A DNA stretch of 64,000 nt, taken from Acidimicrobiales bacterium. GTDB taxonomy: Bacteria; Actinomycetota; Acidimicrobiia; Acidimicrobiales; Poriferisodalaceae. A program made the position numbers and the translations under genes. Of this stretch, positions 7,538-63,684 are shown piece by piece; position 1 is the stretch's first letter, and every line of letters begins with the position of its first letter. The stretch spans positions 1-64,000 of the forward strand of contig VYDH01000014.1 in assembly GCA_009843525.1 (NCBI GenBank). Reading direction: 5' to 3'. A model generated the notes under the pieces. The model saw nothing but the letters and a program-made list of their open reading frames with translations. It made no database searches and was not told the origin of the DNA.

Positions 7538-7903
7538 CTAGGGTGGCGTCCCGGACGCCCACCATTCAGTCGGAGTGGTCGTGGTGGTCGTAGGGGGCGT
7601 CGTAGTCGTCTCCGATGCGCATGGCTTCAGCGCCATAGAGACCACGCCGCCATTCGACCAATACCAAAAGTCGGCGTCAACCTCGTCGAACGCATAGAAC
7701 GCCAATTCGTCGTACACGAGAGACTGGATGAGCGTGCCCAGCACGGTGCGATCCCTGGTGAGCTTGACTGAGTGGATCGCTTCACCGGGCACAACGAAAT
7801 TGCTGTCTGAGTCGTTGCGGGCTATCTCCTGGCACATTCGGTGCCCTCCGGCGCCACTTCTGCGGTTGCGATCCTCGATGTTGTTCGCCTCCTCTGTGGT
7901 CAT
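7538..7903 (-). CDS. Hypothetical protein overlapping integrase 3' end
   Basis: A 121-residue frame whose middle (SLVYDELAFYAFDEVDADFW) looks like genuine protein sequence and whose tail is a Thr/Pro-rich linker ending near TPTEWWASG. It has no signal peptide and matches no family I know. Its 5' part overlaps the integrase frame by 122 bases on the same strand in another frame, so at least one of the two ends is not native. It may be a truncated secreted-protein gene joined here by the integration event. Confidence 0.35.
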   Translation of the reverse strand: MTTEEANNIEDRNRRSGAGGHRMCQEIARNDSDSNFVVPGEAIHSVKLTRDRTVLGTLIQSLVYDELAFYAFDEVDADFWYWSNGGVVSMALKPCASETTTTPPTTTTTTPTEWWASGTPP

Positions 7904-9137
7904 TACAGCTAGGACTGAATCGCTCGCTCACTTGACGGAGCTCATCAAGCGGATGCGGCAGCCGATTGGCCGGGGAGGCCCGGCTGCACGCACCCACGTA
8001 GTCGGCCCAGTCCTGCATGAGTTGGCGGCGCTGCTCGAAGAGGTCTGAGCGGACATAGGCGGCCTCGACGCTGTTGCCGATGACATGGGCGAGTGCGGCC
8101 TCGCCGACAGCCCAGGGCACTGAGGTCTGCTCGATGCACCAAGTCTTGAATGAAGAACGGAAGCCGTGTGCGGTGGAGTCGATGCCAGCAGTGCGGAGCA
8201 CTTTCAGCAGCGCTTCCCAGCTCAGGGGCTGGCCGGCTCGCAGCGGGCTCGGGAACACGAGGCCGCTGCCGTCGCGCAGCTCCGCCGCTTCTTCGAGGAC
8301 CCCGAGCGCTTGGCGGCTGAGTGGCACTCGATGTTCGCCGTTGGCCTTCATGCGATCCGCCGGGATCGTCCAGGTGGCGCCCGGCAAGTCGAACTCCTCC
8401 CAACGGGCACCCCTCGCCTCGCCGCTTCGCGTCGCCGTGAGTATCAGCAGCCGCAGGCACAGCTTGGATGCCAACGACGCCTGGGAACCACCGATTGTCC
8501 GCAGCGCAGCGGGCACGTCGACGTAGGAGAGCGCTCGCTGGTGGTTCTTCGTCTTGGTCATCGACGGCAGCGCCCCATTGATGACCTCACCCGCGGGATT
8601 GACGTCGATCCAGCCGTGGGCGGTGCCGTACTCGAGCACCTTGCGGACTCGCTGGCGAACCCGGCGCGCCGTTTCCGGCTTGACGGTCCAGACAGGCAGC
8701 AGGACGCTCAGCACGTCGGCTCGCTGTATGCGGTGCAGGGGCACGTCACCGAGGCTCTCGAATGCATAGCGCTCGAGACTGGCGAGCCACTCCCGCGCCG
8801 CTTGCTCATTGCGCCAGCGCGGCAGGTTCATCTCGTGGACGATGCGCGCCGCCGCGGCGAAAGTCGGGATCCCGCTCCGGCGTGAGGCCGTAACCGGATC
8901 GTCGCCCCCGGCCGCGTGAGCACGCAATTCCGCTGCCCGCAGGCGGGCGTCGGCGAGACTCACGTCGGGGTAGCCCCCGATGCCGATGTCTCGCTGCTTG
9001 CCGTCTGCAGTTGCCCGAACGACCCATGACCGCGCGCCGGAAGCCTTGACGATGAGTGACAGACCACCGCCGTCAGCGTGCTTTCCGCGTGGCGCATGTT
9101 CGACGAGCTTGGCAGCCAGCCGCTTGGTAGCCCGCAT
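7782..9137 (-). CDS. P4-type tyrosine integrase
   Basis: A site-specific tyrosine recombinase (451 residues as open). The N-terminus has the DUF4102-type arm-binding domain (KHADGGGLSLIVKASGARSW, IGIGGYPDVSLADAR). The core-binding domain follows at about 90-190. The catalytic residues are visible: Arg237 in TATRSGEARG, Lys264, His324-x2-Arg327 in HGFRSSF, His351 and nucleophile Tyr361 in AAYVRSDLFEQRR. The family normally stops soon after QDWADY, so the last roughly 65 residues are probably read-through into foreign sequence. The gene reads away from tRNA-Ala, whose 3' end is 138 bases upstream, the classic layout of a tRNA-integrated island. Confidence 0.9.
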   Translation of the reverse strand: MRATKRLAAKLVEHAPRGKHADGGGLSLIVKASGARSWVVRATADGKQRDIGIGGYPDVSLADARLRAAELRAHAAGGDDPVTASRRSGIPTFAAAARIVHEMNLPRWRNEQAAREWLASLERYAFESLGDVPLHRIQRADVLSVLLPVWTVKPETARRVRQRVRKVLEYGTAHGWIDVNPAGEVINGALPSMTKTKNHQRALSYVDVPAALRTIGGSQASLASKLCLRLLILTATRSGEARGARWEEFDLPGATWTIPADRMKANGEHRVPLSRQALGVLEEAAELRDGSGLVFPSPLRAGQPLSWEALLKVLRTAGIDSTAHGFRSSFKTWCIEQTSVPWAVGEAALAHVIGNSVEAAYVRSDLFEQRRQLMQDWADYVGACSRASPANRLPHPLDELRQVSERFSPSCNDHRGGEQHRGSQPQKWRRRAPNVPGDSPQRLRQQFRCAR

Positions 9138-9139
9138 GC

Positions 9140-9196
9140 AGTTCCCTTTTCGAGTTCGCTTTTTCTTGGGGAACTCACGCTACGACATGGGAACTC
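9140..9196. promoter_or_regulatory. Repeated GGGAACTC motifs upstream of integrase
   Basis: Two direct copies of GGGAACTC (9169-9176 and 9189-9196) lie 20 bp apart, with an inverted AGTTCCC at 9140-9146, all between the integrase start and the tRNA gene. Spacing by two helical turns suits arm-type integrase sites or an excisionase/repressor operator. This is inference from pattern and position only. Confidence 0.4.
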
Positions 9197-9275
9197 TTGA
9201 GGAGTGGCTTTGCGGAAAACTGCTTCTGACCTGCTGTTATAGTCAATTCTGGGAATAAGTGGCAATCTGTTCTCG

Positions 9276-9348
9276 TGGAGGTGAGGGGAATCGAACCCCT
9301 GGCCTCTTCGATGCGACCGAAGCGCTCTACCAACTGAGCTACACCCCC
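9276..9348 (-). tRNA. tRNA-Ala (anticodon CGC)
   Basis: Read on the minus strand, the 73 bases fold as a full cloverleaf. The acceptor GGGGGTG pairs with CACCTCC, the D stem is GCTC/GAGC, the anticodon stem CTTCG/CGAAG carries loop GTCGCAT with anticodon CGC, and the T stem is AGGGG/CCCCT with TTCGATT. The G3-U70 wobble, the alanine identity element, is present, as is discriminator A. CCA is not encoded. The integrase next to its 3' end suggests this gene is, or was, an island attachment site. Confidence 0.96.
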
Positions 9349-9380
9349 GAGTCGGGCGGCCGTCGAATATACCTGCGCTG

Positions 9381-9434
9381 CTGTGACTACTCGTTCGCCT
9401 GACGGCGCTGTGTCTACTCGTTCGCCTGACGGCG
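9381..9434. repeat. 27-bp tandem duplication of a gene 3' end
   Basis: Two tandem 27-bp units (9381-9407 and 9408-9434) differ at one base. The inner copy is the last codons and stop of the membrane-protein gene at 9414-9920; the outer copy repeats them just beyond it. Each unit contains the small inverted repeat CGCC-TGAC-GGCG. Confidence 0.8.
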
Positions 9435-9920
9435 AATCATCCTGACGGTCGACGCGGTGGCTGGGTCTCGCAACGGCAGGTAGTGCACTTCGGCCGTGGG
9501 CGCTGCGCGGCGTCGGCGCACGACGAGCATGACGAATGCGGCCGACGCCACGAACAGCACGCCACAGGCGGCAAGCGCCCACAGCGATCCGGTGACCAGC
9601 GTGCCGGCGAGCGCCACCAGGGTGCACAGCACCAGCAGCGTGCCGATGTCGCGCCGACGGATTGCCGCCTGGGCTGGCGTGGCCGGCATCGACGTGGACG
9701 GGCTGGTCCATCGTCGCTGCGGTCCGCCGGAGTGCCTCAGCTTGTGCTCCTGTGAGATCTGGGCCGCGGCCGGTGCTGATCGGCCGAGTGAATCGAGTTG
9801 CTGGCGGAACTGGTCGACAGAGGAGGTCGCTCTCCGGCGCGGTCGGAACAGACGCGCCACGTCAGGGGCTAGGACAACGATCCAGACGACGGCCAGCAGC
9901 ACCAGGACCAGTTGTGTCAC
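9414..9920 (-). CDS. Hypothetical membrane protein
   Basis: A 168-residue protein with one N-terminal hydrophobic segment (residues about 3-20, LVLVLLAVVWIVVLAPDVA) and a C-terminal pair (about 93-113 and 117-136). These are separated by a basic, Ser/Gln-rich cytoplasmic-looking loop with a VDQFRQQLDSLGR helix. The pattern resembles small conserved actinobacterial membrane proteins of unknown function. It lies between tRNA-Ala and moaC. No catalytic motif is visible. Its last codons are duplicated just downstream (9381-9434). Confidence 0.75.
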   Translation of the reverse strand: MTQLVLVLLAVVWIVVLAPDVARLFRPRRRATSSVDQFRQQLDSLGRSAPAAAQISQEHKLRHSGGPQRRWTSPSTSMPATPAQAAIRRRDIGTLLVLCTLVALAGTLVTGSLWALAACGVLFVASAAFVMLVVRRRRAAPTAEVHYLPLRDPATASTVRMIRRQANE

Positions 9921-10012
9921 GCATCACCTGCCTCGCCGGCGGGCCTGCCCACACAGGGTGCCATCTCGCGATGCACGCACAGCGCATTGCTGATGAGCGA
10001 ATTGGCCGAAGA

Positions 10013-10507
10013 CTAGTGCTCCTCGGCGGACTCTGTCCGCCGGTACGGGCCTGACTTGCCGCCGGTCTTCTCCCACAGCGTGAGGTCGCCGATGACCATG
10101 GACCGGTCGGCCGACTTGCACATGTCGTAGATGGTGAGCGCAGCGATCGAACAGGCCGTCATGGCTTCCATCTCGACGCCGGTTCGATCCACCGTCTCGA
10201 CTTGAGCCTCGATCTCGATCCATGTGTCGGCGATCTCGAAGTTCACATACACAGCACCGACCAGCAGAGGGTGGCAGAGCGGGATGAGATCCGGAGTGCG
10301 CTTGGCGGCCTGGATGCCGGCCACCCGGGCGACAGCAATGACGTCTCCCTTCGCGATCGCACCGCGCGCAACCAGCGACGCCGTCTCGGCTGCCATGTGC
10401 ACACGACAGCGAGCAATCGCGCGGCGGTGGGATGCCTCCTTCGGCGTCACATCGACCATGCGTGCCCGGCCGAGCGGGTCCAAGTGGGTGAAGGGTGACT
10501 CGGCCAT
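10013..10507 (-). CDS. moaC: Cyclic pyranopterin monophosphate synthase MoaC
   Basis: A 164-residue MoaC, which with MoaA converts GTP to cyclic pyranopterin monophosphate, the first step of molybdenum cofactor synthesis. Family blocks are clear: MVDVTPKEASHRRAIA, KGDVIAVARVAGIQAAKRT, LIPLCHPL, VETVDRTGVEMEAMTACSIA and the C-terminal EKTGGKSG. Length is normal. Its ATG lies 4 bases after the moaA stop, so moeA-moaA-moaC form one minus-strand operon. It supplies the cofactor that the molybdoenzymes at 922-7441 need. Confidence 0.97.
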   Translation of the reverse strand: MAESPFTHLDPLGRARMVDVTPKEASHRRAIARCRVHMAAETASLVARGAIAKGDVIAVARVAGIQAAKRTPDLIPLCHPLLVGAVYVNFEIADTWIEIEAQVETVDRTGVEMEAMTACSIAALTIYDMCKSADRSMVIGDLTLWEKTGGKSGPYRRTESAEEH

Positions 10508-10511
10508 GCCT

Positions 10512-11540
10512 TCAGCCGCCGATCTGACTCATCGTCCGTTTGGGTTTGATGAAATTGACCTGACCGATGGAGTGGCCGGCCCATTTCGTGCCGACCGCAT
10601 CGCGGACCGCTGTTGCCAGCAGATCATCCAGCTCGTCGCCCGTCGCACCGCCGCGCAGAATCGACCGCATGTCGAACTCGTCGAGCGCGAACAGGCACGT
10701 GCGGAACTGGCCCTCGGCAGTGAGCCGCACCCGGTCGCAGTTGCCGCAGAACGGTTTGGTGACGCTGGCGATGACACCGACCTGGCCGCCGCCGTCGAGA
10801 TACCGGTAGCGCTCGGCGGGCTCGTTTGCGCGCATGACGGGCTCGGTCGGAAACTCAGCCGAGATTGCCGCCAGGATCTCGTCAGCAGGCACAACGACAT
10901 CTGCATTCCACACGTCGCCGGCTTCGAGCGGCATGAACTCGATGAAGCGGACTTCGACGCCCCGCTCGCGGCCGTACCGGGCGAAATCCACAACTTCGTC
11001 GTCGTTGATGCCACGCATCATGACCGTGTTGATCTTCACCGGGGCGAGCCCGGCATCGACGGCCGCGTCAATGCCGTCGAGCACACGGTCCAGCTCGTCG
11101 CGTCGGGTCAGCTCCAGGAACCGGTCGCGCTGCAGCGAATCGAGGCTGATATTGATGCGCGACAGGCCGGCGGAGGCCAGCGGCTTGGCATGCAGGCGCA
11201 ACGTGGCGCCGTTTGTCGTCAGCGCAACGTCGACGCCCAGCCCGGCGAGGCGTTCGACCAACCGCGGCAGGTGAGCGCGCACCAAGGGCTCACCTCCCGT
11301 CAGGCGAATGCTCTCGAAGCCGAATCGCTCCACGCACACCTTGGCGAATCGCTCGATCTCCTCGAAGCTCAGGATCTCCGATCGCGGCAGCCACGTCATG
11401 CCTTCGGCCGGCATGCAGTACTGGCAGCGGAAGTTGCACCGGTCGGTGACGGAAATGCGCAGGTCGCCCACGATCCGGCCAAACGGATCGATGAGATCGG
11501 TTGCCCGGGCCGGAGCAACGACACCTGCTGCGCCATTCAT
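10512..11540 (-). CDS. moaA: GTP 3',8-cyclase MoaA
   Basis: A 342-residue radical SAM enzyme that rearranges GTP to 3',8-cyclo-GTP for molybdopterin synthesis. The SAM cluster motif is Cys35-x3-Cys39-x2-Cys42 (CNFRCQYC). The second 4Fe-4S site is in FCGNCDRVRLTAEGQFRTC near the C-terminus, and the protein ends in the Gly-Gly needed for activity. LTGGEPLVR and SLDSLQRDRFLELT are further family blocks. ATG start; 33 bases follow the moeA stop and 4 bases precede moaC. Confidence 0.97.
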   Translation of the reverse strand: MNGAAGVVAPARATDLIDPFGRIVGDLRISVTDRCNFRCQYCMPAEGMTWLPRSEILSFEEIERFAKVCVERFGFESIRLTGGEPLVRAHLPRLVERLAGLGVDVALTTNGATLRLHAKPLASAGLSRINISLDSLQRDRFLELTRRDELDRVLDGIDAAVDAGLAPVKINTVMMRGINDDEVVDFARYGRERGVEVRFIEFMPLEAGDVWNADVVVPADEILAAISAEFPTEPVMRANEPAERYRYLDGGGQVGVIASVTKPFCGNCDRVRLTAEGQFRTCLFALDEFDMRSILRGGATGDELDDLLATAVRDAVGTKWAGHSIGQVNFIKPKRTMSQIGG

Positions 11541-58057: not shown

Positions 58058-59260
58058 TCACGGCGCTGCAGTGGCCAGCGGCAAGGACAAGTCGATGCCG
58101 CACAGGTCCGCCGCGGCCGCCAGCTCGCGTCGCAGCGTGACGCCCGCGGCCCCGCGCTGAACCGCAGCGGCGGCGTCGAGCAGCGCAGCATGGGCCATCG
58201 GTGCATTGAGGTTGTCATCCAGCACAGCCTGCACCTCGGCGAGCAGGCCCGATGACCCGTCACCTGATCCAGCGGCAGGCGAGGCGCCCGCGCCGGCTGA
58301 CACCAGCGTGTCCAAGTCGCGCTGGGCAGTAAGACCCTCCGAATCGAACCACTCCCATTCGGTGTGGTAGTGGTGCGCCATCAGCGCCAGCCGGATGGCC
58401 CTGGGATCGATGCGGGCACGAAGATCCGAGACGAAAACCAGGTTGCCGAGCGATTTCGACATCTTGTGCCCCTGGTACGAGACCAGAGCCGCATGCACCC
58501 AGTAACGGGCCAGCGGAGCACCGTGCAGTGCCTCGCTCTGGGCAATCTCGCACTCGTGGTGGGGAAACACCAAATCGCCGCCCCCGCCATGTATGTCGAT
58601 GGTCTCGCCGAGCGCCGCGTAGCTCATGGCCGAGCACTCGATATGCCAGCCAGGCCGCCCCGGGCCGAACGACGACGGCCATGAGGGCTCGCCGTCTGCG
58701 CTGGCCTGCCACAGCACGAAGTCGAGCGCGTTGCGCTGCCGTGGGTCATCGGGGGTGCCGCCGCGCTCGATGGCCAGCTCGATCATGCGGTCGGCGCTGT
58801 AGCCGGACAGCTTCCCGAAGTCGGGGAAGGTGGTGACGTCAAAGAAAACCCGGTCCTCCGAGATGTAGGCATGCCCGGCATCGAGCAGCTGGGAAATCAT
58901 GGTGATCATGGCGTCAATGGACCAGGTGGCCCGCGGCTCGTGCGCCGCGGGCCGTGTTCGAAGTGCGGCCATGTCGGCTTCGAAGCGATCTATCTCCCGC
59001 TCGGCCAGCGACAAGTAGTGCTCGCCCAGCTCGGCCGCCTTGGGCAGGATGCTGTCGTCGACATCGGTGTAGTTGCGTACCAGCGTGACCGTGTGGCCCA
59101 TGTTTTCGAGGCGGCGGATCAGCAGGTCATAGGCCAGATAGGTGGCGGCGTGCCCGAGGTGGGTGGCGTCATAGGGCGTGATGCCGCAGACGTACATACC
59201 GACGTGGTCGTCAAGTTCCATCTCGACGATGGAGCGCTGCGCTGTGTCGTAGATGCGCAT
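58058..59260 (-). CDS. mshC: Cysteine:GlcN-inositol ligase MshC
   Basis: A 400-residue class I aminoacyl-tRNA-synthetase-like ligase from ATG 59260 (MRIYDTAQRS). The YVCGITPYDATHLGHAATYLAYD motif contains the family HIGH-equivalent and distinguishes MshC from CysS; KMSKS is present as HKMSKSLGN. Other blocks: GGGGDLVFPHHECEIAQSEAL (zinc/cysteine site) and VHAALVSYQG. MshC joins cysteine to glucosaminyl-inositol in mycothiol synthesis, supporting an actinobacterial host. The C-terminal anticodon-binding region of CysS is absent or shortened, as in MshC. Confidence 0.92.
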   Translation of the reverse strand: MRIYDTAQRSIVEMELDDHVGMYVCGITPYDATHLGHAATYLAYDLLIRRLENMGHTVTLVRNYTDVDDSILPKAAELGEHYLSLAEREIDRFEADMAALRTRPAAHEPRATWSIDAMITMISQLLDAGHAYISEDRVFFDVTTFPDFGKLSGYSADRMIELAIERGGTPDDPRQRNALDFVLWQASADGEPSWPSSFGPGRPGWHIECSAMSYAALGETIDIHGGGGDLVFPHHECEIAQSEALHGAPLARYWVHAALVSYQGHKMSKSLGNLVFVSDLRARIDPRAIRLALMAHHYHTEWEWFDSEGLTAQRDLDTLVSAGAGASPAAGSGDGSSGLLAEVQAVLDDNLNAPMAHAALLDAAAAVQRGAAGVTLRRELAAAADLCGIDLSLPLATAAP

Positions 59261-59292
59261 TCCCACGGCCCGACACGGTACTGTCGGAGCGG

Positions 59293-60471
59293 GTGGACAA
59301 GCGTGGAGGCGATCGGGCGCTGCTCGAGCGGATCGCCCTGTACCGGCATCGTCGTGGGCTGCCGCCACTGCAACCGGCGGTCATCGATGAGCTTGCCGAA
59401 TGGCTGAGAACCCACGGCGCCGACCCGCTCACCTATGTGTGCGATCTCTTTGAGCGTCACCAGGTGGTCTTCGTCGGCCACCACACCCCCACGCGCCGCG
59501 CGGGGCTGTTCCTGCAGGATCTCGTGGCCGCGGCGTACCGGTCAGGCGTGGGCATCGTGGCGATGGAGTACGCGTGCGTCGATGACCAAGCGCGGCTTGA
59601 CGCCGTGGTTACCGGCGCGACCTTCGACGAACAGCTTGCGCGAGATGCACTGCTCCGCTGGGGCATTCGCCACAACTTCGCCTACCGCGAATACCTCCAT
59701 GTGCTGAGCGCTGTCTGGGAGGTGAACCGCCGCTTCGTCGGCAACGGGCCGCCCATGCGTGTCCTGGCGCTCGACTACGACTTGGATCTCGACGCAGTCA
59801 CCGACACAGCCGACCTGCGGACCTCGTACGCGTGGCCGCATCTGCGCAGCCGCGGCCCGGTGTCGGCGCACATGTGCGACGTGCTGCTCGCCGAGGTCAT
59901 CGAACCGGGCCATCGCGCGCTCGTGCTTGCCCGCACGGCTCACGCGCTGACCCGGGCAAGGCGGCTGCCGCACCGGGTGTGGGACGCCATCGATGCCGAG
60001 ATCGTGGGAGGTCACGTGGTGGGCGCAGCGAACCGCGTGTACGAAGTGGTGGCCGACCGTGCCGTCACTGTGCTGATCCACGAACCATTGCCGGCCGACG
60101 GCGAGCTGTGCGATTACGCGCTGGTTGCCGACGGTGTGCTCGACGCGGCGTTTGCCATGCACGACGACTTGGCCGTGCCGCTCGCCTTCGACGTCGATCA
60201 AGGGCCTGCAGCCCGGCTCGGTTGCACGACGAGCCTCGATCGCGGGCCGCTCGGCAGCCTGGCCACCGGCTGGATCTACCTCGAACCCGACTACGAGCGC
60301 CGGGCGCCGACCCCGTTGGCCGAGCCGGTGCCTGCGGTGTACGTGAACTACGCCCGGCGGTATGCCCTCGATCCAGCGCTGCGAGACGAGAAATCTACTC
60401 CTGGCGACTTCGCAGCGGCCGTGTCCGAATCGGCAGCGGCAGCAGAGCTGGCCTGGACACAAGTGCTCTAG
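59293..60471 (+). CDS. Divergent TIKI/ChaN-superfamily-like protein, copy A
   Basis: A 392-residue soluble protein I place tentatively in the ChaN/EreA/TIKI-like fold: RHQVVFVGHHT (residues 56-65), then VAMEYACVDDQARLD (residues 89-103), FAYREYLHVLSAVWEVN and MRVLALDYD. The conserved GExH of the superfamily is replaced by Gly-His-His-Thr, but the downstream Glu92 is kept. GTG start with a TACTGT -10-like element 9 bases upstream suggests a leaderless mRNA, divergent from mshC. It is followed by a paralogue (copy B) and a phosphatase in one operon. Function unknown. Confidence 0.65.
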   Translation: MDKRGGDRALLERIALYRHRRGLPPLQPAVIDELAEWLRTHGADPLTYVCDLFERHQVVFVGHHTPTRRAGLFLQDLVAAAYRSGVGIVAMEYACVDDQARLDAVVTGATFDEQLARDALLRWGIRHNFAYREYLHVLSAVWEVNRRFVGNGPPMRVLALDYDLDLDAVTDTADLRTSYAWPHLRSRGPVSAHMCDVLLAEVIEPGHRALVLARTAHALTRARRLPHRVWDAIDAEIVGGHVVGAANRVYEVVADRAVTVLIHEPLPADGELCDYALVADGVLDAAFAMHDDLAVPLAFDVDQGPAARLGCTTSLDRGPLGSLATGWIYLEPDYERRAPTPLAEPVPAVYVNYARRYALDPALRDEKSTPGDFAAAVSESAAAAELAWTQVL

Positions 60472-60520
60472 TTCGGCGCACTGTCAGATTCCGGGCCGCC
60501 AGCGGGCAGACTCATGGGCG

Positions 60521-61672
60521 GTGCCGCCCGAAGACCCCACCGACGACGAGCGGCCCACGTCCGCGCTCCAGTCGCCTGAGGAGTACTTGGGCGACCTCTG
60601 CGGTCGCCACCAGATCGTCCTGCTCGGCGATCAGGTCGGAGTCCGCCAGCACCTGGGCTTTCTGGCGAGCGCGCTCGCCGAGCTGGCCGACAACGGCGTG
60701 GAGAATCTCGCTTGGGAGTTCACCAACTCACGCCGCCAAGCCGAGCTTGACGCCCTGATCGAAGCGCCCGAGTGGGACCGACGAGCCTGCGCCGACCTCT
60801 TCGTCGACTTGCTCGGTGCCGGGTTCGGCTACCAGGAGTACGCCGACGTGCTCCACGCGGTTTGGAAGCACAACGAAGCAGAGCGCTGCCGCGATGACGA
60901 CCGGCGGCCCATCCGCGTGATCGCGCTCGGCCTGCCCACCTACGTGGAAGACCCCGACCTGCTCGACGGCCGCTCTGCCGCCGAGCTGGGGCTGCGGAAT
61001 TGGTCGCTCGGCGGGCACTACCGCGACATGTCCGCGTTTCATGCCGCCAGCGTGCTCACCGCCGAGGTACTCCGCCGGGGAGAGCGTGCGCTCGTGTACA
61101 TGAGCGCCGCCGCCACCACCACCGGCCTCGTCGAGTGGGTCGACGGCGCACCGACGACGTCCGCAGGCAACCTCCTGTGGCGCTGGATGGCCGACGGATG
61201 CCGGCGAGTCGTGTTCCACGGCACTGTGGCCGACACTGCCGCCACCGAACGGGTCGAGGAGCTGATCTCACGCTCGCCCGAAGGGCGAGGCGACACCGAC
61301 ATCCGCTTCGGCCTGGACTTGGCAGCGTCAACGCTCGGCAGCGTCGCGATGACGGAGGTGCATGGCTCCGTCGACGGAGCCGATACCTCGCTGCGACTGC
61401 GCGAGGTGGCCGACGGTTACGTCTATCTGGGGCCGCGGGCCGAATGGGCACCGTGCACGCTGATCGATGACCTGATCACCGACGAGAACTTCGCGAGTGC
61501 CGAGGCCCGCTACCGGGCACTCGATCCCCGTCCGGAGCCCTACACCCGCGACGAGCTCGACGAGGTGCGCCGTTCCGGCCAGCAGGAGCTGTCGGGAGCC
61601 TGGCCGCCCCTGCCAGAGCCGCCCGAGGAGCCGAAGCGGCGTTTCGCACGGTTCCGCAAGGGCGACCAGTAG
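60521..61672 (+). CDS. Divergent TIKI/ChaN-superfamily-like protein, copy B
   Basis: A 383-residue paralogue of copy A from GTG 60521; the frame upstream is not coding. The shared blocks are RHQIVLLGDQV (residues 29-39), LAWEFTNSRRQAELD (63-77), FGYQEYADVLHAVWKHN (102-118) and IRVIALGLP. The motif aligned with copy A's GHHT reads Gly-Asp-Gln-Val, so the two have lost the canonical GExH in different ways while keeping the Trp-Glu/Met-Glu block. The C-terminus is basic and Pro-rich (PEEPKRRFARFRKG). It ends 8 bases before the phosphatase gene, so all three are probably one transcript. Confidence 0.65.
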   Translation: MPPEDPTDDERPTSALQSPEEYLGDLCGRHQIVLLGDQVGVRQHLGFLASALAELADNGVENLAWEFTNSRRQAELDALIEAPEWDRRACADLFVDLLGAGFGYQEYADVLHAVWKHNEAERCRDDDRRPIRVIALGLPTYVEDPDLLDGRSAAELGLRNWSLGGHYRDMSAFHAASVLTAEVLRRGERALVYMSAAATTTGLVEWVDGAPTTSAGNLLWRWMADGCRRVVFHGTVADTAATERVEELISRSPEGRGDTDIRFGLDLAASTLGSVAMTEVHGSVDGADTSLRLREVADGYVYLGPRAEWAPCTLIDDLITDENFASAEARYRALDPRPEPYTRDELDEVRRSGQQELSGAWPPLPEPPEEPKRRFARFRKGDQ

Positions 61673-61680
61673 CGAACACC

Positions 61681-62202
61681 GTGCTGCACCGCATCGACGA
61701 GATCCCGCTTCGGGCCGCTGTGCGGACGGGCCGCCTGTTCGTGACCAACTTTTCCGCGGTCGGGCCAGATCCGGGCGGCGCGCTGGATCGCGTGGGCGCA
61801 TCGGTCGTGGCGTGCATGCTGACGCCGCACGAGATCGAGCTGCGCTATCCCGACTACGGCGAGTGGCTCGCCACCCACAGCGACAGCGCCGGAAGCCCCC
61901 GGGCACTCTGGCTGCCCACGCCCGACGGCGGCGTGACGACGGACGGGCCGGTGCTCGAACTCGTAGAGGCAGTCGTCGCAGCGCTCGACCGCGGCGACAG
62001 CGTCCTCGTGCATTGCGGTGCCGGCATGGCTCGCACGGCGGTGATCGGGATCCTGACAATGGTGGCCTTCGGCGCCGACCCGGCCATCGCTGCTGTCGAC
62101 TTCCGGGCGGCCCGTCCCGGCGGAGGTCCCGACGGTCCTCCCCAAGAACGCCAGATCGCTCGCCTCGTCCCCAGAGCCAGACAGCTGCGCCCGAGCAGTT
62201 GA
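61681..62202 (+). CDS. Dual-specificity/tyrosine phosphatase-like protein
   Basis: A 173-residue cysteine phosphatase. The P-loop is VHCGAGMARTAVIG with His111, Cys112 and Arg118; Asp82 in LPTPDGGV fits the general acid. The fold is compact, as in bacterial dual-specificity phosphatases. GTG start 8 bases after copy B. It could act on phosphotyrosine/serine, RNA 5' ends or phosphoinositol-type compounds; the last is attractive only because mycothiol inositol chemistry (mshC) is encoded next door, which is speculation. Confidence 0.8.
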   Translation: MLHRIDEIPLRAAVRTGRLFVTNFSAVGPDPGGALDRVGASVVACMLTPHEIELRYPDYGEWLATHSDSAGSPRALWLPTPDGGVTTDGPVLELVEAVVAALDRGDSVLVHCGAGMARTAVIGILTMVAFGADPAIAAVDFRAARPGGGPDGPPQERQIARLVPRARQLRPSS

Positions 62203-62208
62203 GGCTGC

Positions 62209-63024
62209 TCAAGCCACGGCGGTGTCTGCACCGTCGTGTTCTTCCCAGCGCCAGCCTGAGCGGACCATGATGCAGCGGCGGCGCGGGCCGGGGGCATCCA
62301 GATCGCCGTCGGGAAAGGCCGAATCGCCGACATAGACGGCAATGTGGCCCGGATCGGTATCCGGCGACGGGATGATCTGCGTGTGGAAGCACGTGTGGCC
62401 ATTGATCGAGGCCAGCACATCGGCAGTGCGGGTGAACCCTGACAGCCAGGTGAGCGTCACGAACGTGGGCGTGACGAATTCGATCTCGGCCGCTGCGCGC
62501 CGCTCCAACGCGGCCGCCGGTGACACCCAAGCATGATCGAGGATCTCGCTTCCGTCGACGCGCACCGCCTCAAGGTCGGCTGGCGCCTCGCAGATGAAGA
62601 AGTGCGTCGAGAACCGCTTGGGGCGGATCGGCGGTGGCAGCCAGTGGGCGAAGTGCGTCAGCTCGGCGCGAGACAAGTCGATGCCGGCTTCTTCGTGCGC
62701 CTCCCGCACTGCTGCTGTTCGAAAGCCGCGCCGGTCGCCGTCATGCAGGCCACTTACGCCAGCGGTGCGAGGGTCGCACGCGGCCACCACATCGCCGGGG
62801 GTGTCACGATCAGGCGGGTCCACTCGGCCGCCGGGAAACACCCACATACCGCCGAAGAACCCTCGTGAGTTTCGCTGGAGCATGAGCACCTCGATGTGCG
62901 CTCCTGCGTCGCTCGCCGCGGCGTCGAAACCGTGACCCGGCGCAGCCGCAGGCGTGCCGTCGCGCAGCACCACGACGGTCGCCGCGTCGATCGGCGCGGG
63001 CGGCGCTGTGGGGGCATCAGTCAT
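62209..63024 (-). CDS. NUDT19-like Nudix hydrolase
   Basis: A 271-residue Nudix protein. It opens with AATVVVLRDG and VLMLQRNSRGFFGGMWVFPGG, and the Nudix box is split by an insert, resuming as FRTAAVREAHEEAGIDL (RE..EE...). This architecture resembles NUDT19/acyl-CoA-diphosphatase relatives. Substrate unproven. Converges with the phosphatase gene (6 bases apart). Confidence 0.86.
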   Translation of the reverse strand: MTDAPTAPPAPIDAATVVVLRDGTPAAAPGHGFDAAASDAGAHIEVLMLQRNSRGFFGGMWVFPGGRVDPPDRDTPGDVVAACDPRTAGVSGLHDGDRRGFRTAAVREAHEEAGIDLSRAELTHFAHWLPPPIRPKRFSTHFFICEAPADLEAVRVDGSEILDHAWVSPAAALERRAAAEIEFVTPTFVTLTWLSGFTRTADVLASINGHTCFHTQIIPSPDTDPGHIAVYVGDSAFPDGDLDAPGPRRRCIMVRSGWRWEEHDGADTAVA

Positions 63025-63033
63025 GCGGCCGGC

Positions 63034-63684
63034 CTACGCGGTATCCCGGGTTCGCAACTCCAAGCGATCGGAGCCGGCGTCCATCCCGGGCAGCGGGCGC
63101 GAGACGTAGCCGCTGTGCTTCGCCAGCAGCTCCACCACCATCTCCTCGACTTCGGCCCAGTCATGCGCCCTGGGTCCGTCTACCTGAGCGTTGTAGGGCT
63201 GGTCGAACGTGATCGCGTGCCCGCCCGCGGCACGGATGTCGATCACGTTGTGCGGAGCGTCTTCGATATAGGCGTCGGCGTTCACCATCGCCTTGTCAGC
63301 CACAAAGCAGATGTCGCGATAGGGAATGCGCTCGCGGTCGAGCCATTCGACCGTGTCGCTCACCGTCACGCGGTGGCCCCAGCTCACATACAGGCGGTGG
63401 GTGACGATCCGAATCCACACCCCTGCGTCAGACAGCCGCCACAGCGCCTCAGAGCACCCCTCCATCGGCTTCATCTCACGGAACATGCGGTAGTCGATGA
63501 CGGCGATGCGATGGAGCTCTTCGAACTCGCCGTCGGCTAGACCCCATTCGGTGAAGTTCCAGCCGCGCACGAGCGGCAGCGAGTCTTCCGGAACGCCGCG
63601 CTCGGCCGCCACCACGCGACGGAAGGCCTCAGTGTGCATCCCGCACACACCGTCGAGGTCCACTGCCAATACGAACGCAGGCAT
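63034..63684 (-). CDS. 5'-nucleotidase/HAD-like phosphatase
   Basis: A 216-residue HAD phosphatase of the 5'(3')-deoxyribonucleotidase (NT5C) type: VLAVDLDGVCGMH (motif I, with Asp nucleophile and acid), RIVTHR (motif II), and ADAYIEDAPHNV (motif IV). The central LVRGWNFTEWGLA and substrate-cap region fit the family. Nine bases separate it from the Nudix gene on the same strand; both could cleanse nucleotides. Confidence 0.8.
   Translation of the reverse strand: MPAFVLAVDLDGVCGMHTEAFRRVVAAERGVPEDSLPLVRGWNFTEWGLADGEFEELHRIAVIDYRMFREMKPMEGCSEALWRLSDAGVWIRIVTHRLYVSWGHRVTVSDTVEWLDRERIPYRDICFVADKAMVNADAYIEDAPHNVIDIRAAGGHAITFDQPYNAQVDGPRAHDWAEVEEMVVELLAKHSGYVSRPLPGMDAGSDRLELRTRDTA

What the first reader, a model, noticed from the sequence alone, without database searches (positions are those of the whole stretch)
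59293..62202. Tandem degenerate TIKI/ChaN-like paralogues plus a phosphatase in one operon
Seen: two adjacent paralogues (392 and 383 residues) share four blocks (for example RHQVVFVG/RHQIVLLG, AMEYACVDDQARLD/AWEFTNSRRQAELD, FAYREYLHVL/FGYQEYADVL). A dual-specificity phosphatase (HCGAGMART) follows 8 bases after the second. Known: ChaN/EreA/TIKI-type proteins use a GExH motif plus glutamate. Here that motif is GHHT in one copy and GDQV in the other, while the second Glu is retained. Inference: a duplicated, chemically diverged pair acting with a phosphatase, perhaps as a heterodimer. The operon may start as a leaderless transcript divergent from mshC.
Basis: partly seen in the sequence, partly recalled or inferred. 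Interest (0 to 1): 0.72.

Follow-up and report, generated by a model that had tools for sequence, protein, structure and literature searches.

The report
Paired ChaN/TIKI-fold proteins without catalytic histidine
One family of actinobacteria known from metagenomes carries two related proteins built on the fold of erythromycin-cleaving enzymes and the heme-binding protein ChaN, but the histidine those enzymes use is missing, so they probably bind or process something else.

Summary
Adjacent genes A (59293-60471) and B (60521-61672) are full-length paralogues (hhalign probability 99.9%, 320 columns), and a CX5R phosphatase starts 8 bases after B. Modest-confidence models put both in the TIKI/EreA/ChaN superfamily. 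The GExH histidine is absent from all 36 homologues aligned (19 A, 17 B). What remains differs: in B an Asp and a Glu are fixed (17 of 17), while A drifts (E/H/Q, E/D, H/N). In the genomes searched the pair is confined to one Acidimicrobiia family: A in 35 of 37, A and B adjacent in 29, A in 0 of 24 genomes of other families of the order. The phosphatase trio is not general: an orthologue beside B occurs only in the window's genus (11 of 11); in 16 of 16 fetched loci of five other genera B is followed by a 5'-nucleotidase and a Nudix gene. The leaderless-start guess is supported: GTACTSTCR ends just before A in 27 of 27 genomes, a box also found at enolase, ftsK and ruvC genes. Most likely a clade-specific cytosolic pair with a repurposed pocket in B; heterodimer and substrate untested.

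The parts
59277..59286 (+). GGTACTGTCG, TANNNT-type -10 box; TACTGT ends 8 nt before the GTG of A; leaderless promoter
   Evidence: GTACTSTCR upstream of A in 27 of 27 relatives (GGTACTSTCR in 26), 7-9 nt from the start; in 0 of 24 B, 0 of 27 mshC, 0 of 25 NT5C, 0 of 22 Nudix and 0 of 4 phosphatase upstreams
59293..60471 (+). Gene A: ChaN/TIKI-fold protein, 392 aa, no membrane-like or signal-like stretch
   Evidence: PF04187 E 2e-4; Foldseek HopBA1, BcR135, ChaN; hydropathy
59476..59490 (+). A residues G62-P66 (GHHTP), place of GExH; no His at the base position
   Evidence: 19 A sequences
59566..59568 (+). A E92, second Glu (E in 15 of 19, D in 4)
60079..60081 (+). A H263, invariant His at the end of a later strand, aligned with B H233
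   Evidence: 19 of 19; A-B alignment
60521..61672 (+). Gene B: ChaN/TIKI-fold paralogue, 383 aa
   Evidence: Foldseek 3b55, HopBA1, ChaN, EreC
60626..60652 (+). B residues G36-H44 (GDQVGVRQH): fixed D37 and H44 (17 of 17 each), no GExH His
60716..60718 (+). B E66, retained second Glu (17 of 17)
61217..61219 (+). B H233 (17 of 17)
61634..61669 (+). B basic C-terminal tail (5-8 K/R in the last 12 residues in 17 of 17 B; 0-1 in 19 of 19 A)
61681..62202 (+). Dual-specificity-type phosphatase, CX5R signature at C112; conserved beside B only in this genus
58058..59260 (-). mshC-like ligase, divergent neighbour (32 bases from A if it starts at the ATG at 59260)
   Evidence: synteny
62209..63024 (-). 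Nudix hydrolase; co-directional with A-B in genera g2 and g4-g7
63034..63684 (-). NT5C-type 5'-nucleotidase (PF06941); follows B in genera g2 and g4-g7

Best explanation
A and B are an old duplicate pair of cytosolic TIKI/EreA/ChaN-fold proteins, found only in one Acidimicrobiia family among the genomes searched, with A starting at a leaderless promoter of housekeeping type. Shown at the level stated: fold, paralogy, restricted range, purifying selection, promoter element, and no His at the aligned GExH base position in 36 of 36. Inferred: the classical 2His/2Glu chemistry is gone; B keeps a fixed but altered pocket (D37, E66, perhaps with invariant H44 and H233) that binds or acts on a ligand and may dock through its basic tail; A, whose site drifts, is a non-catalytic partner that shapes or stabilises B, or a parallel binding protein. 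The phosphatase is a genus-level neighbour, not part of the core mechanism.
For: Superfamily structures are the first 18 PDB matches of B and the first 14 of A. A-B profile match is full length; the tree puts all 19 A on one side and all 17 B on the other (support 100). GExH His 0 of 36; first acid E 6 / H 10 / Q 3 in A, D 17 of 17 in B; second Glu E 15 / D 4 in A, E 17 of 17 in B; late-strand His H 10 / N 9 in A, 0 of 17 in B. Range. B is found in 34 of the 35 family genomes with A. dN/dS well under 1. [quoted passage not shown]
Against: AF2 models are modest (mean pLDDT 64, pTM 0.69-0.70); only 6 (B) and 2 (A) PDB matches reach E 0.001; TM-scores are low; no coordinates were available to test pocket geometry, and catalytic places rest on sequence alignment. 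In the same TIKI protease the mutants of the GExH Glu or His kept some activity in cells (PMC6254334, section 7), so losing that His need not end all activity. No complex was modelled. A without detectable B in G012. The A-drifts / B-fixed contrast rests on 19 and 17 sequences.
Confidence: 0.42

Rival explanations
1. Both are pseudoenzymes: ligand-binding, scaffold or regulatory proteins with no chemistry, as the TIKI-fold region of Pasteurella multocida toxin lacks the 2His/2Glu set.
For: GExH His absent in 36 of 36; late-strand His absent in 17 of 17 B; A site drifts. A motif-less TIKI domain is described in PMC6254334 (section 7 read).
Against: B keeps D37, E66, H44 and H233 in 17 of 17, which looks like a constrained pocket; but these residues could be structural or ligand-binding.
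Confidence: 0.3
2. A reprogrammed hydrolase: an invariant His on a later strand (A H263, B H233) or B H44 replaces the lost base, so one or both still hydrolyse an ester, peptide or phosphoester.
For: H263 19 of 19 and H233 17 of 17, aligned to each other; retained acidic residues in B.
Against: Geometry untested; the acids at these places vary in A.
Confidence: 0.15
3. Heme or tetrapyrrole binding as reported for Campylobacter ChaN.
For: The only Pfam match of A up to E 1 is ChaN; ChaN 2g5g is in both fold lists.
Against: No signal-like N-terminus; the neighbours tracked are not heme genes by their Pfam matches, though not every neighbour was named; ChaN heme ligands were not compared.
Confidence: 0.05
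4. One reading: A, B and the phosphatase form one functional system.
For: 8-base gap, same strand, orthologue after B in 11 of 11 genomes of the genus.
Against: In the other 26 family genomes no phosphatase match lies beside B (17 have a weak match elsewhere); in 16 of 16 fetched loci of genera g2 and g4-g7 B is followed by NT5C and Nudix.
Confidence: 0.06

Closest known systems
ChaN (PF04187, PDB 2g5g)
   Same: Fold; Pfam match of A residues 54-174; a Q...LD block after the second Glu, invariant in A and B (presence in ChaN is recalled)
   Different: GExH His lost; longer than the Pfam match; no export signal seen; present as a duplicated pair
EreC and the BcR135-type proteins (erythromycin esterase family; 6xcq/6xcs, 3b55/2rad, 2qgm)
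   Same: Similar length and fold matches over about 400 columns; second Glu
   Different: Base H50 (EreC numbering, PMC7979712 passages) has no counterpart in 36 of 36; H289 counterpart absent in B
HopBA1 (PDB 5t09)
   Same: First fold match of A and third of B; its GDEH strand aligns with B GDQV and A GHHT, at non-significant E 0.28 and 0.64
   Different: HopBA1 has His where A and B do not; about 220 residues
Pasteurella multocida toxin TIKI-fold region (2ebf)
   Same: Superfamily fold without the 2His/2Glu set (PMC6254334); listed for both models
   Different: A toxin; A and B are a chromosomal pair with a housekeeping-type promoter

Membership tests
TIKI/EreA/ChaN superfamily | Common parallel beta-sheet core with helices | tested here: met
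   B: first 18 PDB matches are superfamily structures, E 6e-6 to 2e-2; A: first 14, E 3e-4 to 7e-3. Six entries titled only 'bacterial protein toxins' (6a7h, 6a8j chains) are counted as RRSP by recall. Models of modest confidence
TIKI/EreA/ChaN superfamily | Sequence-profile match | tested here: inconclusive
   A: PF04187 E 2e-4, 21.8 bits under the cut-off of 27.7, 7 of 19 A members match at E up to 1; B: none for the window protein, 4 of 17 members, best E 0.015
Active TIKI/Ere hydrolases | GExH or GExxH His, the general base | tested here: not met
   No His at either place in 19 of 19 A and 17 of 17 B; places from sequence alignment
Active TIKI/Ere hydrolases | First Glu | tested here: not met
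   Window A has H, window B has D; A: E in 6 of 19; B: D in 17 of 17
Active TIKI/Ere hydrolases | Second Glu | tested here: met
   A E 15, D 4 of 19; B E 17 of 17
Active TIKI/Ere hydrolases | Late-strand His (EreC H289) | tested here: inconclusive
   A H 10 (window included), N 9 of 19; B 0 of 17: met by window A, not by B; place from sequence alignment only, in a low-confidence part of the models
ChaN heme proteins | Export or lipoprotein signal | tested here: not met
   No hydrophobic N-terminus in the window proteins or four further sequences of each kind
ChaN heme proteins | Heme binding | not testable with these tools
   needs purified protein
Dual-specificity phosphatase (third gene) | CX5R signature | tested here: met
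   HCGAGMART
Dual-specificity phosphatase (third gene) | Family profile match | tested here: inconclusive
   PF22784 E 3e-5, PF00782 E 2e-4, both under cut-off; solved phosphatases from E 2e-5
Leaderless gene (gene A) | TANNNT about 12 bp before the start codon | tested here: met
   27 of 27 genomes; criterion from PMC3160421 passages; the transcript start itself was not tested

The most novel reading that the evidence does not exclude
A family-specific core heterocomplex of two TIKI-fold proteins in which the old His-base site was dismantled in both subunits and a new acid/His pocket (D37, E66, H44, H233) in B carries out a chemistry not known for the superfamily, with A as a pseudo-subunit.
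Probability: 0.18. Interest if true: 0.6.

Novelty: new variant of a known kind. Interest (0 to 1): 0.38.

Why it matters
The TIKI/EreA/ChaN fold serves Wnt proteases, macrolide esterases, heme binding and toxins (PMC6254334, PMC7979712). A strongly conserved, lineage-restricted pair without the catalytic histidine, one of them behind a housekeeping-type promoter, is a clean natural case for asking what the fold does without its classical site and whether enzyme/pseudoenzyme pairing occurs in it. It also suggests a leaderless promoter consensus for a family known here only from metagenome assemblies.

Tried and rejected
Phosphatase as conserved partner: rejected on its genus-only place beside B. 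Co-loss of A/B with mshC as a functional link: G023 and G033 lack A, B and the mshC orthologue, but also the neighbouring ParA and NT5C orthologues, so a missing block or assembly gap explains it. The promoter motif as an A-only operator: rejected, because it also precedes enolase, ftsK and ruvC genes. Defence link: no PADLOC match for A, B or the phosphatase; the Nudix protein matched PDC-S07 over 27 residues. Phage link: no PHROG match for A or B; the phosphatase matched phage dual-specificity phosphatase families weakly. Wider homologues: A profile, 0 of 295 other genomes of the class sample; B profile, 1 of 295, a weak match in an EreA-like protein with GETHH (G157), and 1 of 395 in the phylum sample, a weak 84-position match in an 884-residue frame (G530), not followed. 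These three searches scored at most 4-6 first-look candidates per genome, so they may miss remote relatives; the A profile was not run on the phylum. Second structural aligner: not available. Papers: no paper in the listed parts of searches has a title or shown abstract on this pair; two listed 15 of 1,382 and 10 of 161 papers, and the whole-word term 'acidimicrobi' in 79 could match no longer word, so this is a thin search.

Full report
Observation. The three genes are as described. A and B are paralogues: BLASTP 29% identity over 229 columns, E 6e-16; profiles of 19 A and 17 B homologues align over 320 columns with probability 99.9%. A tree of the 36 sequences puts all A on one side and all B on the other (support 100; a quick tree with long branches flagged), so the duplication is probably older than the sampled family.

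Fold. A matches Pfam PF04187 (ChaN) at E 2e-4, under the curated cut-off; B alone has no Pfam match up to E 1. AlphaFold2 models from 17 (A) and 15 (B) sequences have mean pLDDT 64 and pTM 0.69-0.70. In Foldseek against the PDB the first 18 matches of B (BcR135, HopBA1, Pasteurella toxin C-terminal region, 2qgm, ChaN, EreC, RRSP; best E 6e-6, six at E up to 0.001) and the first 14 of A (best E 3e-4, two at E up to 0.001) are superfamily structures; the entries titled only 'bacterial protein toxins' are counted as RRSP by recall. TM-scores by query length are low (0.29-0.45), and the ranks after these are unrelated P-loop and other folds with much lower probability. Two separately predicted paralogues giving the same list is the main strength.

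Active site. [quoted passage not shown] In EreC the base is H50 with E47, E78 and H289 (PMC7979712, passages read). Here no His stands at the base place in 36 of 36. A, of 19: first acid E 6, H 10, Q 3; second Glu E 15, D 4; late-strand residue H 10, N 9. B, of 17: first acid D 17; second Glu 17; late-strand residue never His. The six E of A are those of the deep branches (L048-L053), so the first Glu was most simply lost within the family. B also has invariant H44, H174 and H233, A invariant H227 and H263; B H233 aligns with A H263. B ends in a basic tail (5-8 K/R among the last 12 residues, 17 of 17), A does not (0-1 in 19 of 19). In the five A and five B sequences printed no 19-residue stretch exceeds a mean hydropathy of 1.67 and the N-termini are not hydrophobic, so I take both as cytosolic. 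The catalytic places rest on sequence alignment, helped by weak, non-significant alignments to HopBA1, not on superposed coordinates.

Range. A is found in 35 of 61 relatives: 11 of 11 genomes of the genus (window's included), 24 of 26 others of the family, 0 of 24 in other families of the order. With profiles: 0 of 295 other genomes of the class sample for A, 1 weak of 295 for B, 1 weak of 395 of the phylum sample for B; these scored only 4-6 candidates per genome. The 18 named loci are all metagenome assemblies titled Acidimicrobiia or a group within it, or Actinomycetota. Of the 35 genomes with A, 29 have B adjacent on the same strand, five have B elsewhere (G018 about 3.2 kb away; G017, G019, G020 and G025 on other contigs, where distance is unknown), and one (G012) has no detectable B. 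The two family genomes without A lack the whole block.

Context. In the fetched loci A is divergent from the mshC-like gene: directly in genera g1, g2 and g4-g7, and 1.2-2.6 kb away in the six deep-branch loci L048-L053, with a BrkB gene between (Pfam in L051; by eye in others). In 16 of 16 fetched loci of genera g2 and g4-g7 that hold B, it is followed on the same strand by an NT5C-type 5'-nucleotidase and a Nudix gene. In the window's genus these two are inverted and the phosphatase sits between. In three deep-branch loci with upstream sequence, B is preceded by a PEP-utilizer domain protein (L048, L054, L057). A phosphatase orthologue (74-100% identity) beside B is found in 11 of 11 genomes of the genus; of the other 26 family genomes 17 have a weak match elsewhere and none beside B; five of 24 genomes of other families have a match, four of them at 34-49% over 109 residues or more.

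Promoter. GTACTSTCR lies upstream of A in 27 of 27 genomes examined, GGTACTSTCR in 26, with 7-9 nt between TACTST and the start codon; it is absent upstream of B (24 loci), NT5C (25), Nudix (22), mshC (27) and the phosphatase (4), and the 26 GGTACTSTCR in 354,157 bases are those of A. A looser TANNNT at 6-9 nt is also seen at 6 of 25 NT5C and 4 of 27 mshC starts. In the window alone GGTACTSTC occurs once against 0.24 expected, which 22 of 100 shuffles reach, so the case rests on the conservation. It fits the TANNNT signal about 12 bp before leaderless starts (PMC3160421, passages read). In six whole genomes the motif plus a start codon at 5-7 nt occurs 23 times (5 of them at A; A of G018 has TGTACT and is not matched) against 7 for the reversed pattern. 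By Pfam these others include enolase, FtsK (two), RuvC, a GntR-type regulator, an AMP-binding enzyme and a glycosyltransferase; two of nine tested had no match, and three open frames of 26-77 codons, probably chance. So A has what looks like a housekeeping leaderless promoter, not a private operator. The gap to mshC is about 32 bases in the window and about 140 in L035.

Selection. Against four same-genus genomes dN/dS is 0.055-0.125 for A, 0.12-0.18 for B, 0.15-0.23 for the phosphatase and 0.13-0.18 for the mshC-like gene.

Reading. Fold, paralogy, loss of the GExH His, restricted range, constraint and the promoter element are shown at the level stated. That B holds the working pocket and A is a partner is inferred from the contrast in conservation. 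Substrate, complex formation and any link to mshC, NT5C or Nudix are unknown. I rate this a new variant of a known superfamily with moderate interest.

Noticed in passing
window 62209-63684 (Nudix, NT5C): Window NT5C is 96-97% identical to L033, L034 and L062 but 76% to L032, although A and B are closer to L032 than to L033 or L062: looks like recombination or gene replacement at this end of the cluster.
   Followed up: no
L048 7403-9151, L057 2162-4027, L054 6592-7860: Deep-branch genomes have a PEP-utilizer domain protein (PF00391) just upstream of B, touching or overlapping it in L048 and L057.
   Followed up: partly
L052 (G012) 7900-10525: An HrpB-type helicase gene (PF08482) lies between A and the regulator-like and NT5C genes, where B might be expected; no B was found in this genome.
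   Followed up: partly
window 58058-59260: The mshC-like gene scores higher for MshC but misses its cut-off, while meeting that of CysS; G012 has three such genes.
   Followed up: no
L119-L141: GGTACTSTCR with a nearby start codon marks enolase and FtsK genes in several genomes, a candidate leaderless promoter consensus for the family.
   Followed up: partly
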